64,000 bases of DNA from Anaerolineaceae bacterium. GTDB lineage: Bacteria; Chloroflexota; Anaerolineae; Aggregatilineales; Phototrophicaceae. Both the position numbers and the translations under genes were made by a program. Under the pieces are notes generated by a model. The model did no database searches. It was not told the DNA's origin and was given only the letters and a program-made list of their open reading frames with translations. The stretch covers positions 62,001-126,000 of the forward strand of contig PABP01000034.1 of NCBI GenBank assembly GCA_002699585.1. The letters run 5' to 3'. Of this stretch, positions 56,045 to 64,000 are shown in pieces (position 1 is the stretch's first letter; each line of letters starts with the position of its first letter).

Positions 56045-58249
56045 TTATAAGGGACCACTTGCGCTGTGGTCTAATTGGTTGACCGAATAGGGGATCGTTA
56101 CGATAAATGTCGTTCCTTTATTCTGTATAGAGCTGAATTCTATGTTGCCATCGTGATGCCTCACGGCACGCTCAACAATAGACAACCCCAGGCCCGTGCC
56201 GCGTTTGTTGCCAACATTCGCACCCCGGATAAAAGGGTCGAAAATATGGCTCTGATCGGCTTCTGGGATGCCGATGCCCGTATCGGACACAGTCAGTTGC
56301 CACTGGTCCTCCTGATAATCCAGGGTTACGCGGACGACCTTGCTTTCGCTGCTGTACTTGATGGCGTTCTCCACAAGATTGATAAATATATGCTGCATCT
56401 GAGTGATATCACAGCGGACATTTTGGACCTTGCCTGTAATATCAAAAGTGATGTCGTAACCTGTGCCGATACTGGCAAGCAGGTCTTCGTAGGCGCTCCT
56501 AAAGACAGCACTGAGATCGATGTGGCTGCGATCTTTCTGCTTATGTGGGGTTTCGTCCAGGGTTAGCGAGAGCAGGTCATTCAGCATTTCTGTCATACGG
56601 GTGACGTTGGAGTCAATCTGGTTGAAGTTACGCGCGCGCTGCTGGTCATTCATGCGTTCGTAGTAGCGCTCTAAACCATCTTTTGCGGAAAGAATCGTCG
56701 CCAGCGGCGTACGGAATTCATGCGATACGACCGCAATGAACTGCGACTTCAACTGGTTGAGTTCCATCTCATGCGCCAATGCGTCGCGCAAGCCTTCTTC
56801 CATCTTCTTCAAGTCACTGATGTCACGTATCGTGAACACAATACCACTGACATGGTCGCGGCTGTTGCGGACGGCGGCCAGGGTTGTATCGATATAAGTC
56901 GGATTGGTATCGCGGTTGATGGTCGTCGCGATGAGGCGCTCCGACTGCGATACACCACTTGCAACGCGCACCAGGGCAGCGGCACAATCATTGGACTGCT
57001 GCGGGTCAATGTCTATCAACTCAACGATAGATAGGTTCTCATCAGTGCGGGTTAGCGGTCCAAATATCTTTTCGAAAGCCGTATTCGTCCGAATAATATG
57101 CCCATCTTGTGTGGTGAAGGCTACGCCATCGCTACTGTAATTGAGAATGGTCTCGACCTGTTCTTTCGCCTCTCGCAGTTCAAGCGTGCGTTCTGCCAAT
57201 AGCTGCTCTTGATCGGTAGCAAAGGTACGGATTTCTTCATAGAGACGTGCATTTTCGATGGCGACTGCCGCGCGTTGGGCAAAAGCTTCAAGAACGCGCA
57301 CGTCGTTGGGGCTAAAAGAGTGCGTTTGCGTACTCTGTAAGTCGAGCACGCCAATAATGTTGTTATTCGTGCGCAGTGGGATGACCAGCTCGGATTTGGC
57401 TTCCGGTACATTGGCGACGTAGCGCGTATCCTGGCTGACATCCGGGGCGTAGGTTGTGATGCCGCTGCGAATCGCAGAGGGGACCAACCCCGGCCCATCC
57501 AGATAAAGCGGCTCGGCGGTGCTTAAGCCTTCAATACCGGCGCGGGGTAAGCGCTCTAACTGCGGTGAATACAGATCGACCAGGATGACGCCACAATCCA
57601 CATGTGCGAACTCTTTGACGACGGCTTCAGCAATTTGACCACCCAACATGCGGACGTTATCGGTTGTGAGCAAAACAGAAGTTGCATTGTAGAGAGCTTC
57701 AAGTTCGCTGGTGGTTTGTTCTTGCTGACGATAAATCGTTGCCAGATGAACGGCCAGACTGGTCTGAGCAACGAGGGGCTGTATCCGTCGAACGTCCTGG
57801 TCACTGAATTGATTGGGCGTCATGCCCTGTAGGAAGATGAATCCGAAAAATGCATCCTGAGTGAACATGGGGATCGCAATATGCGACCGGATCCATTGCG
57901 TCCGGTCATCGATAATCCAGTCAGGATCATTGTGTGTATCGGCTGTCAGGACGGGTTGGTGCGTCGTATAGGCTTGCTTGAGCGCGACATACTCGTCGAC
58001 ATTGAAAATGTCATTCGCCTGCAAATAGGAGAGGTCGTTGGGATAATAACTGCGGAAGTTGCGGACTTTGTCACCATCTAGCAGGGAGATGGTAATGACA
58101 TCTGAAACAACAACTTCACTGATACAAGATAACAGATAGTCCAGTACGGCATCGATATCTGGCATCCGCTGCATGACTTCGATAGGCATGCGTTGTACCA
58201 GTGCGTTGATATCTTGAGATAACCCTTGCGGTTCTTCCACTTGATTCAT
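56045..58249 (-). CDS. Sensor histidine kinase with GAF-GAF-PAS input
   Basis: 734 aa, no membrane segments, so a cytoplasmic sensor. Two GAF domains (about 20-175 and 190-340; the second has VPEAKSELVIPLRTNNNIIG) and a PAS domain (about 365-485; DGHIIRTNTAFEKIFG) precede the HisKA helix pair with VSHEFRTPLATIL (phospho-His about 512). The HATPase domain has NLVENAIKYS (N box), DTGIGIPEAD (G1) and GTGLGLSIV (G2). All catalytic motifs are intact. Signals may be small ligands or redox/light cofactors bound by the GAF or PAS domains. First of four signalling genes on this strand; no receiver partner is adjacent downstream. Confidence 0.92.
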   Translation of the reverse strand: MNQVEEPQGLSQDINALVQRMPIEVMQRMPDIDAVLDYLLSCISEVVVSDVITISLLDGDKVRNFRSYYPNDLSYLQANDIFNVDEYVALKQAYTTHQPVLTADTHNDPDWIIDDRTQWIRSHIAIPMFTQDAFFGFIFLQGMTPNQFSDQDVRRIQPLVAQTSLAVHLATIYRQQEQTTSELEALYNATSVLLTTDNVRMLGGQIAEAVVKEFAHVDCGVILVDLYSPQLERLPRAGIEGLSTAEPLYLDGPGLVPSAIRSGITTYAPDVSQDTRYVANVPEAKSELVIPLRTNNNIIGVLDLQSTQTHSFSPNDVRVLEAFAQRAAVAIENARLYEEIRTFATDQEQLLAERTLELREAKEQVETILNYSSDGVAFTTQDGHIIRTNTAFEKIFGPLTRTDENLSIVELIDIDPQQSNDCAAALVRVASGVSQSERLIATTINRDTNPTYIDTTLAAVRNSRDHVSGIVFTIRDISDLKKMEEGLRDALAHEMELNQLKSQFIAVVSHEFRTPLATILSAKDGLERYYERMNDQQRARNFNQIDSNVTRMTEMLNDLLSLTLDETPHKQKDRSHIDLSAVFRSAYEDLLASIGTGYDITFDITGKVQNVRCDITQMQHIFINLVENAIKYSSESKVVRVTLDYQEDQWQLTVSDTGIGIPEADQSHIFDPFIRGANVGNKRGTGLGLSIVERAVRHHDGNIEFSSIQNKGTTFIVTIPYSVNQLDHSASGPL

Positions 58250-58485: not shown

Positions 58486-59619
58486 CTAAACACTAATCGA
58501 CACTGTTGTGCCTTTACCGGGCGTACTGTTGATGTGTAATGCGCCATCAAACATCTTGGCCAGATGCTGCACGATGGCCAACCCCAGGCCAATGCCTTGT
58601 TGTTCGTAGATATTGCGATTGAACTGAATGTAGGCACCTATCTGTTGGATTTCGCTTTCGCTCATGCCCGTGCCGTAATCTGTGACCGAAACCTCGTAGC
58701 GTCCCCTGGTATCAAAACCGGATGTGATCTTAATCGGCGTGCCTTGCTTGGAAAAAGCACAGGCGTTGCGCAATAGTTCATGCAGCATTTTGGTGAGCAC
58801 AGGCTCCGGTAGGGGGCTATCCTCTTCCATCATATTGAAGACCAGATCTTGCTTACGCCCATAGTCGGCAGCAAGGTTTTTACATTCCGCCTGTATATCC
58901 ACAGCCCAACCATACTGGCTGTTGCGTAGATGGGCAGCGACAGTCTCGATATCGACATCTATCGTGCTGAGTTCAGTAAACAGCAGGTAGTTCTCTACCA
59001 TGCGATGTAATTTCTTACCCGCATTTAGGATGTGGCTCGCCCGTGAGGCTTCCTCAGTGTTGCCCTTTTTCCCGGCATCTTGCAGCATAATTTCGCTGTA
59101 GCCCAGGATGGTTGTCAAAGGTGTACGGAACTCATGGGGCAAGGAACGCGTCACCAGATCATGGATCTGTTGAACGCGCTGCTGTTGGGACTCCGCAACG
59201 GCCTTCACTTTTTGCATTTGCGTTTCGATGGCTTGCAGCATCTCGTCATAGGAAAATGGCTTGGTGATGTAGTCATCAGCGCCTAATTCCATACCCGCGC
59301 GCATATCACTGCGTTCCGCTTTGGCTGTCATGAAGATGAACGGAATCAGCCGTGTGCTGGCGTGCGAACGAATCGCCTTGAGCACCTGATAGCCATTGAT
59401 GTGCGGCATCATAATGTCGCACAGGATCACATCGGGTTCTTTGCTGAGTGCAGCAGCGATCCCGTGGGCGCCATCTGGTGCGGTAATGACCTCGAAATTT
59501 TCCATGCTCAGGACATCAGTCATGTCCAAGCGCAGGTCCTTTTCATCCTCGATTATGAGGACGCGAGTGGGCTTTTCCTTGTCGAAATTCGTTTCTACAT
59601 CCTGTGTGGCTGAGATCAT
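58486..59619 (-). CDS. Hybrid receiver - histidine kinase
   Basis: 377 aa. An N-terminal receiver (about residues 15-130) has VLIIEDEKD, phospho-Asp in VILCDIMMPHINGYQ (about 68), FIFMTAKA and ADDYITKPF. The HisKA domain has RSLPHEFRTPLTTILGYSE (phospho-His about 163), and the HATPase LLRNACAFSK, DYGTGMSESE, GIGLGLAIV. Receiver-first hybrid kinases usually take phosphate from an upstream kinase and change their own activity. I use ATG 59619 because AGGTAAT precedes it; the longer frame to 59814 overlaps the neighbouring kinase gene. It likely connects with the kinase encoded immediately upstream (59720-61378). Confidence 0.88.
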   Translation of the reverse strand: MISATQDVETNFDKEKPTRVLIIEDEKDLRLDMTDVLSMENFEVITAPDGAHGIAAALSKEPDVILCDIMMPHINGYQVLKAIRSHASTRLIPFIFMTAKAERSDMRAGMELGADDYITKPFSYDEMLQAIETQMQKVKAVAESQQQRVQQIHDLVTRSLPHEFRTPLTTILGYSEIMLQDAGKKGNTEEASRASHILNAGKKLHRMVENYLLFTELSTIDVDIETVAAHLRNSQYGWAVDIQAECKNLAADYGRKQDLVFNMMEEDSPLPEPVLTKMLHELLRNACAFSKQGTPIKITSGFDTRGRYEVSVTDYGTGMSESEIQQIGAYIQFNRNIYEQQGIGLGLAIVQHLAKMFDGALHINSTPGKGTTVSISV

Positions 59620-59719
59620 TGAAATTACCTGCCAGTCTATGCTTCTTAAGGATTTTGTTATTTCGATTTCTAATTGCTTACGATCAAAATACGGGTTATT
59701 GGCTAGCTTATGCAGACTG

Positions 59720-61378
59720 CTATAACGCGCTCGATTTAGTGAAACGACACGTGACGGTCGTGCCTTCACCCAGGGTGCTCTCCAAAGCCACGTCACCGCC
59801 CAGCAAGCGCACATCCTCTTTCAGAATGGCCAGGCCCAACCCATTGCCTGGGAGGGGCAGGGCATTACTCGAGCGATAGAAACTCTCGAATACGCGATCA
59901 ATATCTTCCTGCGGGATGCCGACGCCGTTGTCGGCCACTTGTACGATCACTTCAGACTGTGTTGTTTGTAGGATGACCCGAACCTGGCCGTCGTCCTCGC
60001 TGAACTTAAACGCATTCGCGATCAATTGGCGCAAGATGCGCCGCAAGACTTCTTCGTCTGCCCAAATTGTCGCATCGTCATCGGTCGTCGCCTGGTAGAG
60101 GATGTCGACTCGCCCGTGGTCTATCTGATATTTGCGCAAGAAGCGCGTTAACCATTTGTTGACGTCAATCGGCATCGGGTTGAATAGCGTCTGATGACTC
60201 TCTAGGTCGCTCAAAACCAATACATTGTCGAGCAACACGGTCATTCGTTCGATTTGCTGCTTGATGCGCTCCAGGCGTTGAACACGATGATCGTGGTTCA
60301 TCTTGTCGTGGTAATCGACGAAGGACTCCGCAGCGGCCTGGATGATCGCCAGGGGGGTGCGGAATTGGTGCGACGCCATCGAAACAAATTGGGAACGCAG
60401 ATGATTCACTTCTTGTTCGTGGGCCAACTGCGTGCGCAACTGATTTTCGATCTTTACGCGTTCAGTCACGTCTTGCATGGTACATACGAAGCCAACATGG
60501 GCTTTCAGTTCGACAATAGCCGCTATGGTAATGTCGACGTTTTGCTGTTCTTCTGTATTCAGTTGCACCATGACCTGACTTTGGCTACCTGAATCGTGCG
60601 CATCCTGCATGGCCTCGCGCAGCACATCCATATCCTGGTCGTGCACAATCTCCCAGAAGGGCTGCCCGATATAATCGTTGATGTCGCATTGCATCAGACG
60701 CGAGAAGGGCGCATTGTATTGTTGAATAATGCCGTCTTCGTTCAGGAATAAGATGACATTCGAGCTGTTTTCCAAAGCTAGACGAAAACGATTGTTGCTG
60801 CTCATCAGCTCGGCCTGGGTGCCCTTGTCAAATGTGGCCACCTGTTGCCAGTTGAGTTGCTCTAGCAGCGTATGCAAAATCCCCATCGTACCCTGGACGG
60901 CGAAATGGTCTAAAAGATGGGTGGGTTCATCCCCCAGATCATGTTGGAATTCACCTTCATTAGCTGAAGTTGCCACCGACAACCCGCCAAAGTCATGACT
61001 GCCATCAGCCAGGGGTATTACCCAAAGGTGCTCCCAATCTTCATTTAAGAGCGTATCCGTGAGCACATAGGAGTCGTCTATCTGTCCGCGATAGATATGC
61101 CCGATTTCAAGCGGATTGCGTACCCAATTTAAGGGCGTGGAGTGTGTAACCAAGGATACTTCATGATGGGTGCCCCTGGCAATAATCGACCCATCACCGG
61201 CACCAATGGCCGCCAGATTTACAAAACCAACGGCGGAGTCGCAGGTACTACAATGCTCCAACATCAGCCTGATGGTTGCCAGTAGCACCTCAGAAATGTT
61301 GGTGCCATAAAGGATCTCAGGGTGAAGCGAGAGTTGCTCCCTATTTGAATGTATTTGTCTAGCAGTGCGTGGATTCAA
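59720..61378 (-). CDS. Sensor histidine kinase with GAF-like and PAS input
   Basis: 552 aa, cytoplasmic. N-terminal region (about 20-190) resembles a GAF domain with a CSTC pair near residues 43-46 that could bind a metal or act as redox switch. PAS domain at about 200-310 (NVILFLNEDGIIQQYNAPFSRLMQCD), HisKA with MASHQFRTPLAIIQ (phospho-His about 345), HATPase with LIANAFKFSE, DNGVGIPQED and GNGLGLAIL. TTG 61378 is the start, with CAGGGA 6 nt upstream. It lies 100 nt before the receiver-kinase gene, and the two are probably co-transcribed. Confidence 0.88.
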   Translation of the reverse strand: MNPRTARQIHSNREQLSLHPEILYGTNISEVLLATIRLMLEHCSTCDSAVGFVNLAAIGAGDGSIIARGTHHEVSLVTHSTPLNWVRNPLEIGHIYRGQIDDSYVLTDTLLNEDWEHLWVIPLADGSHDFGGLSVATSANEGEFQHDLGDEPTHLLDHFAVQGTMGILHTLLEQLNWQQVATFDKGTQAELMSSNNRFRLALENSSNVILFLNEDGIIQQYNAPFSRLMQCDINDYIGQPFWEIVHDQDMDVLREAMQDAHDSGSQSQVMVQLNTEEQQNVDITIAAIVELKAHVGFVCTMQDVTERVKIENQLRTQLAHEQEVNHLRSQFVSMASHQFRTPLAIIQAAAESFVDYHDKMNHDHRVQRLERIKQQIERMTVLLDNVLVLSDLESHQTLFNPMPIDVNKWLTRFLRKYQIDHGRVDILYQATTDDDATIWADEEVLRRILRQLIANAFKFSEDDGQVRVILQTTQSEVIVQVADNGVGIPQEDIDRVFESFYRSSNALPLPGNGLGLAILKEDVRLLGGDVALESTLGEGTTVTCRFTKSSAL

Positions 61379-61615: not shown

Positions 61616-63400
61616 CTAAGTTTCAGCGGAAATCAACCCCAGGTTAACCGCGTAGCGCATGAGTGATGCTTGGCCGCGAATGCCCAGCTTCCGCATCATA
61701 TTGCTGCGGTGTGTTTCCACAGTACGCGGGCTGATGACCAACTTCTCGGCAATTTTAGTATTTTGCAGGCCTTCCAACACCATAAACAGAATCTCGCGCT
61801 CGCGCCGCGTCAGCGATTGATAGGCTTCATCCTGCGTTTCTGGACGACTAGGCAGCTCTTTGCGATCGGGCTGGACGTTCTGGTCAACGACCTGTACGCC
61901 TTGTTCGATACGCTCCAAAGCTGCCAGCAAGACTTTGCTACCGGATTGCTTGAGAATGTAGCCGTCGGCCCCGTTAATCATACACGAATGGGCATAGGCC
62001 GACTGCGGATAGTTCGACAGGACAATCAGGCGCATATCTGGCTGCAACTGGGACAGCTCACTCAAAATCGGGCCTGTGTTGGATTCTGACAGGGTATAGC
62101 TCATGATGAGCAGGTCGGCATGAATATCCTGGATCAGGTTCCGCAGGCCGCGTAGCGTCTGGACTTCGGCCCGGACGGTATAGTTGCCTTCGGTCGTCAG
62201 GATGGTCCGCAAGCCCTGGCGCACGAGGTCATTCTCTTCCGCGATGATAACGGTACGCTGGGCCTCGCCGGCCACTGCGGGCGATTCAGCCGCGACTGAA
62301 ATGGTGCCAAAAACCTGGGCGGCGGGCAACGTGGTTACGGGTTGGGCAGTCGCAGTCGTCACCTGATAGGGTAGGTTGACCGAAACAGATGTGCCTTCAG
62401 TGGGCGTTGACTGCAAAAGCGCGTAGCCGCCGACCGCCGTCGCACGTTCCCGCATGGTGAACAGGCCGTGCGTGTTGGGGTCATTCAATGCCTGGTTCAG
62501 ATCAAAGCCTTTGCCTTCATCGATGACTTCAATCAGCAGGGAATTATCTTCGGTCCACATGTCGGCTTCGATGCTGGCGACCTGGGCATACTTGGCTGCG
62601 TTCAACAATGCTTCCTGTAGGATGCGGAAAGCCGCCAGTTCGATGTCATGCTGTATGTGCCCACTGATGTCACGATGCCTGAAGTTGACCTGAACATCAT
62701 ATTGATTGCTGATTTGCTGGCATAACCAGGTGACTGCCTGGATCAGGCCCACATGCTTGAGCATGACCGGGCGCAGCTCATGGATGAAGCCCTGCACTCG
62801 TTGGGTCAGATTATCGATAATCTGTATGGACTGGTCATACACGGGCTTCTGGTCGATGATCCGCTGCGACTCTTGCGTGCTCATAATCATCTTCAAGCCG
62901 GACAACACGCTCAAGACCTCGTCTTGCAGGTAAACGGCGGTGTTGTCCCGCTCGACTTCCTGGTAATCGATCAGACGTTGAGACAGCACGCGCAGTTGTT
63001 GCATCTGGCGCTTGGCTTCCTTATTACGCCGTGCCTGGATTGCAGTTAACAGATCCTCTTTTGTGAAGGGTTTGGTCATATAGTCATCAGCACCCAGGCT
63101 CATGCCGCGCCGCTGGTTGGCGTGGTCGGCAAATGCCGTCAGGAAGATGAAAGGAATTGTTGCTGTTGAAGAGTCTTTTTGCAGCGCCTCCAAGACTTGA
63201 TAGCCATCCATATCTGGCATGCCCACATCACAGATGATCATATCCGGCGATTCTTGGCGCGCTTTGGCAATGCCTTCTGTACCATTGGCGGCCTCGATGG
63301 CATTAAAATCCTCAAATGTTAGGATGTCGAGCAACTCTTCTCGGAGTTCTGCTTCATCATCTATGACAAGGATTGTGATGGGTTGCGGGTCCGTGTCCAT
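61616..63400 (-). CDS. Fused receiver - pseudokinase - pseudo-receiver - LuxR regulator
   Basis: 594 aa. REC1 (about 8-125) is canonical: VIDDEAE, CDVGMPDMDGYQ, FLTAFA, DDYMTKPF. The NarX-type HisKA_3 helix (about 145-165) reads EVERDNTAVYLQDEVLSVL. Relatives have RELHDE there, so the phospho-His is Gln. The HATPase (about 255-345) is intact (ILQEALLNAAKYA, IDEGKGFD, GLFTMRERA). REC2 (about 385-500) has AEEND instead of ADDH and LLIMSYT instead of LLLDxxM, so it lacks the phospho-Asp. The LuxR HTH (about 525-590; LTRREREILFMVLEGL, ISPRTVETHRSNMMRKL) is intact. It probably binds DNA under control of REC1 phosphorylation and ATP binding. AGAGGTAATC precedes ATG 63400. Confidence 0.9.
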   Translation of the reverse strand: MDTDPQPITILVIDDEAELREELLDILTFEDFNAIEAANGTEGIAKARQESPDMIICDVGMPDMDGYQVLEALQKDSSTATIPFIFLTAFADHANQRRGMSLGADDYMTKPFTKEDLLTAIQARRNKEAKRQMQQLRVLSQRLIDYQEVERDNTAVYLQDEVLSVLSGLKMIMSTQESQRIIDQKPVYDQSIQIIDNLTQRVQGFIHELRPVMLKHVGLIQAVTWLCQQISNQYDVQVNFRHRDISGHIQHDIELAAFRILQEALLNAAKYAQVASIEADMWTEDNSLLIEVIDEGKGFDLNQALNDPNTHGLFTMRERATAVGGYALLQSTPTEGTSVSVNLPYQVTTATAQPVTTLPAAQVFGTISVAAESPAVAGEAQRTVIIAEENDLVRQGLRTILTTEGNYTVRAEVQTLRGLRNLIQDIHADLLIMSYTLSESNTGPILSELSQLQPDMRLIVLSNYPQSAYAHSCMINGADGYILKQSGSKVLLAALERIEQGVQVVDQNVQPDRKELPSRPETQDEAYQSLTRREREILFMVLEGLQNTKIAEKLVISPRTVETHRSNMMRKLGIRGQASLMRYAVNLGLISAET

Positions 63401-63881: not shown

Positions 63882-64000
63882 ATGTATCGTGTACTGCTAA
63901 TCGAAGATGAAGCTCAACTGTTGGAAAATTTAGCAGAGAATCTTTCGTTTGAAGGGTTTGAAGTCTATACAGCCGGAGATGGTTGGGCGGGGGTACAGGC
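63882..64000 (+). CDS. Response regulator receiver (partial, runs off the window)
   Basis: The first 39 codons read MYRVLLIEDEAQLLENLAEN followed by LSFEGFEVYTAGDGWAGVQA, the start of a receiver domain with the acidic pair IEDE. AAGGACTGCAGGT precedes ATG 63882. The output domain is beyond the window. It is divergent from the fused regulator and may be the receiver partner of the kinases on the minus strand. Confidence 0.85.
   Translation, partial: MYRVLLIEDEAQLLENLAENLSFEGFEVYTAGDGWAGVQ

What the first reader, a model, noticed from the sequence alone, without database searches (positions are those of the whole stretch)
61616..63400. One-chain regulator with live first receiver but dead kinase His and dead second receiver
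The protein joins REC, NarX-like HisKA_3/HATPase, a second NarL-like REC and a LuxR helix-turn-helix. The ELHD phospho-His of HisKA_3 is YLQD (His to Gln) and the second receiver has Ser for the phospho-Asp and EE for the acidic pair, while the ATP-binding site and HTH motifs are kept. This looks like a NarX-NarL phosphorelay collapsed into a single polypeptide and converted from phosphotransfer to conformational signalling: REC1 phosphorylation and ATP binding would gate DNA binding directly.
Basis: partly seen in the sequence, partly recalled or inferred. Interest (0 to 1): 0.65.

Follow-up and report, generated by a model that had tools for sequence, protein, structure and literature searches.

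The report
One-chain regulator with decayed kinase core
A bacterial gene switch that once passed phosphate along a relay inside one protein has kept its input and DNA-binding ends while its inner relay parts decay, and in several related bacteria it sits beside genes for an archaeal-type swimming filament.

Summary
The 594-aa protein reads REC1, NarX-like transmitter, REC2, LuxR/GerE helix-turn-helix. Gln159 replaces the phospho-His; Ser434 replaces the REC2 phospho-Asp, with EE as its acidic pair. REC1 and the ATP-binding motifs are intact.

It is not a one-off. I found 15 members of this kind, the window included: 13 in 154 genomes of the order, 2 in a 396-genome class sample. REC1's site is complete in 15 of 15. 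His is kept in 3, and only G049 also keeps an acidic residue after it. The other 12 hold Q, K, D, G, R, E or S. REC2's standard set is complete in 1; REC2 is deleted in another. ATP motifs are gone in 3. REC1 and HTH are about twice as conserved as the domains between. Unfused kinases of this type keep the His: 18 of 18 read in the window's genome.

Best reading: a NarX-NarL-type relay fused into one chain, now a REC1-to-DNA switch on a pseudokinase scaffold. ATP gating is possible here but not general. In three relatives the gene touches archaellum genes; in the window's genome they lie 16.4 kb away. New variant of a known kind.

The parts
61616..63400 (-). whole gene: REC1-pseudotransmitter-pseudoREC2-LuxR HTH, 594 aa
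63035..63373 (-). REC1 (residues 10-122), all phosphorylation-site residues kept; D58 codon at 63227-63229
   Evidence: Pfam Response_reg 10-122; site complete in 15 of 15 members
62726..63034 (-). linker and DHp helices (residues 123-225), HisKA_3-like; limits approximate
   Evidence: alignment; no Pfam HisKA_3 row
62924..62926 (-). Gln159 codon (CAA) at the phospho-His position
62351..62725 (-). CA / HATPase_c region (residues 226-350, limits approximate), N and G1 motifs kept
   Evidence: Pfam HATPase_c 255-345
61886..62257 (-). REC2 (residues 382-505, limits approximate), pseudo-receiver: E388/E389, Ser434
62099..62101 (-). Ser434 codon at the REC2 phospho-Asp position
61649..61819 (-). 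LuxR/GerE helix-turn-helix (residues 528-584)
   Evidence: Pfam GerE E 4e-20
63882..64000 (+). start of a divergent REC-HisKA kinase gene (387 aa, runs past the window end; H-box VSHDLR); candidate partner kinase for REC1
   Evidence: a REC-HisKA kinase also stands next to the fused gene in G106 and G078, and one gene away in G146 and G147
59720..61378 (-). PAS-HisKA-HATPase kinase, candidate partner
58486..59814 (-). REC-HisKA-HATPase kinase (listed start probably too far upstream), candidate partner
56045..58249 (-). GAF-PAS-HisKA-HATPase kinase, candidate partner

Best explanation
A REC-HisKA_3 kinase gene and its NarL-type response-regulator gene fused into one chain. After fusion the His-to-Asp transfer became dispensable and the catalytic residues decayed. 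The protein now works as a transcription factor whose switch is REC1. A separate kinase, most simply one of the REC-HisKA or PAS-HisKA kinases encoded beside it, phosphorylates Asp58 of REC1. REC1~P changes the pose of the DHp/CA dimer, which serves as scaffold and dimeriser, and through the decayed REC2 this frees or pairs the LuxR helix-turn-helix domains on DNA. ATP may still bind the window protein's CA domain and bias the switch, but that is not a general feature of the family. Shown from sequence: the architecture, the loss of His and of the REC2 site, conservation of REC1 and HTH, and the existence of unfused cousins. Inferred: the fusion history, which kinase feeds REC1, the conformational coupling, and the target genes.
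For: REC1 phosphorylation residues are complete in 15 of 15 members, while the His is kept in 3 of 15. Among those 3, the residue after His is acidic only in G049 (E; T in G078, G in G079). Mean pairwise identity among 12 members is REC1 0.52, HTH 0.52, DHp 0.29, CA 0.28, REC2 0.27. In 7 selected unfused His-bearing kinase/regulator pairs it is DHp 0.40, CA 0.38, REC 0.47, HTH 0.48. G106 has no REC2 (445 aa from the inner start: REC, HATPase_c, GerE) in one open frame. G149, G147 and G146 have lost ATP motifs but keep REC1 and HTH. A state like the un-fused one exists in G311: a REC-HisKA_3 kinase with RELHDEIGQ, whose reading frame overlaps that of a NarL-type regulator. 18 of 18 other transmitter-type kinases read from the window's genome have His. 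A REC-HisKA kinase lies next to the fused gene in the window, G106 and G078, and one gene away in G146 and G147. Precedent for a kinase fold used as a phospho-receiver sensor: DivL, PMC4211667 (passages).
Against: No biochemistry, and no usable structure: the single-sequence AlphaFold model had mean pLDDT 36. Among the 9 members that keep the ATP site (G079, G416 and G392 not counted), CA identity is 0.36, close to the 0.38 of unfused pairs, so there the CA domain may still be doing something. G392 keeps REC1, a His-less DHp, CA and REC2 but has no HTH, so not every member can act as a transcription factor. G049 looks competent for an internal relay. In G151, G066, G061, G078 and others an Asp is still present at the REC2 site, so phosphorylation of REC2 from outside is not excluded there. 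No one partner kinase is present at every locus read.
Confidence: 0.6

Rival explanations
1. The protein is a pseudogene-like, decaying remnant with no regulatory role.
For: The His and REC2 sites are degenerate in the window and in most members. The middle domains diverge fast. One member has lost its HTH.
Against: Open frames of near full length persist at 25-40% identity to the window protein, in several families of the order and two genomes outside it. The REC1 site is complete in 15 of 15. The HTH is present, with its His564 and Arg565 positions kept, in 13 of 14 members whose frame is not cut. A dying gene would not keep exactly the two ends.
Confidence: 0.05
2. Phosphatase or sink: the transmitter lost kinase activity but works as a phosphatase that drains REC1 or a partner regulator.
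For: His does not appear to take part in HisKA_3 phosphatase activity (PMC12632262 section 6).
Against: The DxxxQ phosphatase motif (recalled from work on NarX-type kinases, from no call) is complete in 1 of 15 members (G151). It is not complete in the window protein (D160 kept, Ser at the Gln position), but is complete in the three comparison proteins aligned with them.
Confidence: 0.06
3. ATP-gated switch: the CA domain is the main sensor (nucleotide charge or a bound ligand), and REC1 modulates it.
For: N and G1 motifs are kept in 12 of 15 members, the window included, although most of these have no His to serve. Among 9 such members CA identity is 0.36, a little above DHp 0.33 and REC2 0.31, and near the 0.38 of unfused pairs.
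Against: Three members have lost the ATP motifs and keep REC1 and HTH. Over 12 members CA (0.28) is no better kept than DHp (0.29) or REC2 (0.27) and far below REC1 and HTH (0.52).
Confidence: 0.17
4. Trans-phosphorylated hybrid: a separate kinase heterodimerises with the DHp and phosphorylates REC1 or REC2 in trans, so phosphotransfer still drives REC2 where its Asp remains.
For: Heterodimers with a pseudokinase are reported in one system (ChrS/HrrS, PMC9491836, abstract). The REC2 Asp position is kept in several members.
Against: The window protein lacks the REC2 Asp. REC2 is absent in G106, and its active-site set is complete only in G049.
Confidence: 0.1

Closest known systems
NarX/NarL-type two-component systems (HisKA_3 kinase plus NarL/FixJ regulator)
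   Same: Transmitter and regulator domains align with those of 7 adjacent unfused kinase and regulator gene pairs that I read
   Different: One chain, an extra N-terminal REC, no phospho-His, no REC2 phospho-Asp
DivL pseudo-histidine kinase of Caulobacter (PMC4211667, passages)
   Same: Phospho-His replaced, transmitter fold kept, an intact receiver as the likely input
   Different: DivL has PAS domains, a Tyr conserved across nearly all homologues, a receiver (DivK) in trans and no DNA-binding domain mentioned. Here the receiver is in cis, the residue varies freely and the output is a LuxR HTH
Pseudo-receiver regulators (PMC12632262, section 6 and passages)
   Same: REC2 lacks key residues and is followed by an output domain
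   Different: A second, intact receiver in the same chain can take over the input
Hybrid two-component systems of Bacteroides (HTCS; recalled, no call)
   Same: Kinase, receiver and HTH in one chain
   Different: AraC-type HTH, periplasmic sensor and working phosphotransfer there (recalled); LuxR HTH, REC input and dead relay here
Intact fused kinase-regulator of G568 (L215)
   Same: HisKA_3 kinase, REC and LuxR HTH in one chain
   Different: Keeps His, DxxxQ and the REC Asp; the N-terminus is not a receiver (it looks GAF-like by eye)

Membership tests
HisKA_3 sensor/hybrid histidine kinase | phosphorylatable His in the DHp | tested here: not met
   Gln159
HisKA_3 sensor/hybrid histidine kinase | N and G1 ATP-binding motifs | tested here: met
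   N267, D294, G296, G298; Pfam HATPase_c
HisKA_3 sensor/hybrid histidine kinase | Pfam HisKA_3 match | tested here: not met
   no HisKA_3 row up to E 0.1
NarL/FixJ response regulator | phosphorylatable receiver directly before the HTH | tested here: not met
   REC2 EE and Ser434
NarL/FixJ response regulator | GerE/LuxR helix-turn-helix | tested here: met
   GerE 528-584, E 4e-20
pseudo-histidine kinase (DivL-like) | transmitter without phospho-His | tested here: met
pseudo-histidine kinase (DivL-like) | responds to a phosphorylated receiver | not testable with these tools
   needs biochemistry; REC1 is intact in cis
pseudo-receiver | receiver lacking at least one of the five conserved residues | tested here: met
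   REC2: Asp to Ser
Bacteroides HTCS | AraC-type HTH output (recalled) | tested here: not met
   GerE, no AraC row
Bacteroides HTCS | periplasmic sensor domain and membrane span (recalled) | not tested
   no transmembrane prediction was run

The most novel reading that the evidence does not exclude
A family of regulators in which a complete two-component relay fused, lost its chemistry and became a one-chain REC1-to-DNA allosteric switch, with REC2 shed altogether in at least one lineage, and in which several members control archaella acquired from Archaea: a home-grown bacterial regulator wired to a foreign motility machine.
Probability: 0.25. Interest if true: 0.75.

Novelty: new variant of a known kind. 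Interest (0 to 1): 0.55.

Why it matters
Pseudo-histidine kinases and pseudo-receivers are known one by one, but the mechanisms of bacterial pseudo-receivers are called a mystery in the abstract of PMC12632262 (seen in the listing). Here both sit in one chain with an intact receiver. The family offers members at graded stages of decay: G049 apparently intact; G078 with His but no acidic neighbour; the window with neither His nor REC2 Asp; G106 without REC2; G146, G147 and G149 without an ATP site. That series makes it testable which domains are still needed. It may also supply a regulator for bacterial archaella. I found none named by term search in the main text of the two Chloroflexota archaellum papers I opened (PMC12488501; PMC13319060); other papers listed were not opened.

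Tried and rejected
Single-sequence AlphaFold of the window protein gave mean pLDDT 36 and was not used. The one genome-contig scan kept 80 loci; the table shows matches mostly to the first receiver, and I read none of them further.

One-off mutation or sequencing error: rejected, since 12 of 15 members lack the His. A conserved functional Gln: rejected, since only 3 of the 12 carry Gln. A single ancestral loss of His: neither shown nor excluded. The fewest His changes on the REC1-DHp-CA tree are 3, but holding the non-His rows together is not rejected (p-AU 0.186). The full-length tree of 13 needs only 1, and most inner branches are weak.

Archaellum control as the settled function: not accepted. 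5 of 13 carriers in the order (G093, G112, G079, G151, G149; G079 and G151 are 69% and 65% complete), and both carriers outside it, have no archaellin match. 18 of 26 archaellin-bearing genomes have no fused gene that I found. In G061 the two lie about 830 kb apart, and in G106, G146 and G147 on different contigs. The linkage probability assumed 6 Mb genomes and a distance chosen after seeing the data.

Set aside before counting: matches read through a stop. Those that I read are separate kinase and regulator genes (L002, L099, L128, L132-L135, L137, L138, L188 and, by gene order alone, L141). Most rows were not read, among them G312 and G297, the latter an open frame over 125-592. G079 (L098) ends early and was left out of REC2, HTH and identity counts; G416 and G392 were found after the identity count.

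I therefore moved that rival from 0.15 to 0.17 and the remnant rival from 0.07 to 0.05.

Full report
OBSERVATION. The gene lies at 61616-63400 on the minus strand: ATG start, AGAGGT upstream, 594 aa. Pfam finds Response_reg (two stretches), HATPase_c and GerE. NCBIfam transmitter models MctS and UhpB match within 120-351, below their cut-offs, and NarL-type models match the C-terminal part. Pfam HisKA_3 is not reported, so the DHp rests on alignment. REC2 does keep Ser462 and Lys484.

RELATIVES. The window is G000 C3:62001-126000. A single-sequence search of 154 genomes of the order at E 1e-65 found 9 carriers, the window's genome included (up to 8 candidates scored per genome). The same search over 396 genomes of the class and 400 of the phylum (3 candidates scored per genome) found no further full-length fused protein. 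A profile search of the order added G106, G149, G147 and G146. A profile search of 396 genomes of the class added G416 and G392. One of 271 genomes of the phylum added none among the rows that I read. The single-sequence search had missed divergent members, so more may exist. This gives 15 members, the others at 25-40% identity to the window protein. G079 is cut short.

RESIDUES. REC1 site: complete in 15 of 15. Acceptor: H in G049, G078, G079; Q in the window, G093, G066; K in G112; D in G151, G392; G in G061; R in G106, G149, G147; E in G146; S in G416. Among the three His members the next residue is acidic only in G049. The DxxxQ motif (recalled as the HisKA_3 phosphatase motif) is complete in 1 of 15, G151, and in all three comparison proteins. 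N and G1 motifs: kept in 12 of 15, lost in G149, G147, G146. REC2: the complete set only in G049; Asp replaced in the window (S), G112 (S), G093 (G), G392 (N); the domain absent in G106 (the D that the aligner puts there lies in the short linker). Pfam reports only one receiver in G149 and G147. The alignment of REC2 in G149, G147, G146 and G416 is uncertain. HTH: present in 13 of the 14 members whose reading frame is not cut, absent in G392.

RELATIVE CONSTRAINT. Mean pairwise identity over 12 members (G079, G416 and G392 not included) is 0.52 for REC1 and for HTH, against 0.29, 0.28 and 0.27 for DHp, CA and REC2. Over the 9 of these that keep the ATP site it is REC1 0.54, HTH 0.58, DHp 0.33, CA 0.36, REC2 0.31. 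Seven selected unfused His-bearing pairs give DHp 0.40, CA 0.38, REC 0.47, HTH 0.48. The pairs are a mixed set of paralogues, so this control is rough. Relative to its ends, the middle of the fused protein has loosened, REC2 most clearly. In absolute terms the CA of the ATP-site members is close to that of the unfused kinases, which leaves room for a role of ATP there.

CONTROL FOR HIS. From the 139 matches I took the 18 that cover the transmitter region and are not plain REC or REC-HisKA matches; all 18 have the His. Fetching by similarity may favour well-kept kinases. A published survey gives 56 of 16,025 HisKA_3 domains without His and 2.0% of receivers without Asp (PMC12632262, section 6). 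That survey depends on HisKA_3 being recognised, and Pfam did not recognise it here, so the true rate may be higher.

ORIGIN. G311 carries a REC-HisKA_3 kinase with intact His and DxxxQ, and its reading frame overlaps that of a NarL-type regulator. G497 has a similar adjacent pair. This is what the un-fused state should look like; descent is inferred. G568 shows that fused kinase-regulator chains with His and Asp intact also exist. Tree of REC1-DHp-CA: the three His members group together (90/89) and nest with G066 and G061 (81/86). The fewest changes are 3, but a single loss is not rejected, p-AU 0.186. On the full-length tree of 13 the fewest is 1.

SURROUNDINGS. In the window, four kinases surround the gene: a divergent REC-HisKA kinase from 63882, and three more downstream on the same strand. 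A REC-HisKA kinase also stands next to the fused gene in G106 and G078, and one gene away, behind another kinase-like gene, in G146 and G147. G149 has a REC-PAS-HisKA-like kinase overlapping the gene start (by eye). By eye I saw none immediately beside it in G049, G061, G066, G093 or G112; G093 has a REC-kinase-like gene about 3 kb away. The contigs of G151 and G079 are short. These kinases are the natural candidates to phosphorylate REC1; this is inferred.

ARCHAELLUM LINK. In G066 and G078 the fused gene lies directly upstream of archaellin genes (Pfam Arch_flagellin), on the same strand and within 300 bases. In G049 it is convergent with, and within 20 bases of, the last gene of an operon that starts with archaellin and holds T2SSF and PilN genes. 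In the window's genome a similar operon starts 16,445 bases beyond the gene start, outside the window. Archaellin occurs in 26 of 154 genomes of the order: 8 of 13 carriers and 18 of 141 others, Fisher p 0.00017, not corrected for kinship or genome size. Four of the 8 shared genomes have the two within 17 kb; under random placement in 6 Mb p is about 7e-8, with the distance chosen afterwards. Outside the order, G416 and G392 have no archaellin match. Bacterial archaella in Chloroflexota are established (PMC12488501: abstract, section 7 and passages). That my genomes are Chloroflexota is a recalled inference: they are unnamed and no taxonomy call was made. A term search of that paper for response regulator, two-component, transcription and histidine kinase found nothing, and one of PMC13319060 found no regulator. 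Archaellum control is a lead for the family; for the window protein I put it near 0.35.

MECHANISM. Best reading, confidence 0.6: an external kinase phosphorylates REC1; the pseudo-transmitter dimer and pseudo-REC2 carry the change to the HTH. G106, without REC2, is the strongest single argument that the path does not need REC2 chemistry. G149, G147 and G146 argue against ATP as an obligatory part. DivL shows that a kinase fold without His can read a phosphorylated receiver (PMC4211667, passages).

NOVELTY. Pseudo-histidine kinases, pseudo-receivers and fused relays are each known. Their combination with an intact receiver in cis and a LuxR output I did not see in the listings (open-licence papers only; one search listed 20 of 356). 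I file it as a new variant of a known kind.

Noticed in passing
L139:7846-17523 (G000 C3, about 16-26 kb beyond the regulator, outside the window): Archaellum-type operon in the window's own genome: an archaellin (PF01917 match at C3:141884), then genes that by eye and position look like arlCDE, arlG, arlF, arlH, arlI, arlJ, a prepilin peptidase-like gene and PilN-like genes (no family search of these).
   Followed up: partly
L180:8437-9078: Directly upstream of two archaellin genes in G147 stands a LuxR-type regulator whose receiver is below Pfam's cut-off and looks degenerate (DS pair, no Asp in VLVHYS): perhaps a second archaellum-side regulator without a phosphorylation site.
   Followed up: partly
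L168:655-5695, L178:10369-14732, L179:8138-8815: Two-component genes stand beside archaellin in G088, G091 and G146. With G147 that is 4 of 18 archaellum loci looked at with a rough motif scan (cut rows); 5 more loci were read in other calls and 3 of the 26 genomes were not fetched for this.
   Followed up: partly
L187:1459-3021: G392 carries a member without HTH, between glycosyltransferase-like genes.
   Followed up: no
L107:14871-17191: Four tandem similar small secreted-looking proteins (KKPLTT motif after a hydrophobic start) between the regulator and the archaellum operon in the window's genome.
   Followed up: no
L215:1495-3285: G568 has a fused kinase-regulator with His, DxxxQ and Asp all intact, a useful comparison.
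   Followed up: partly
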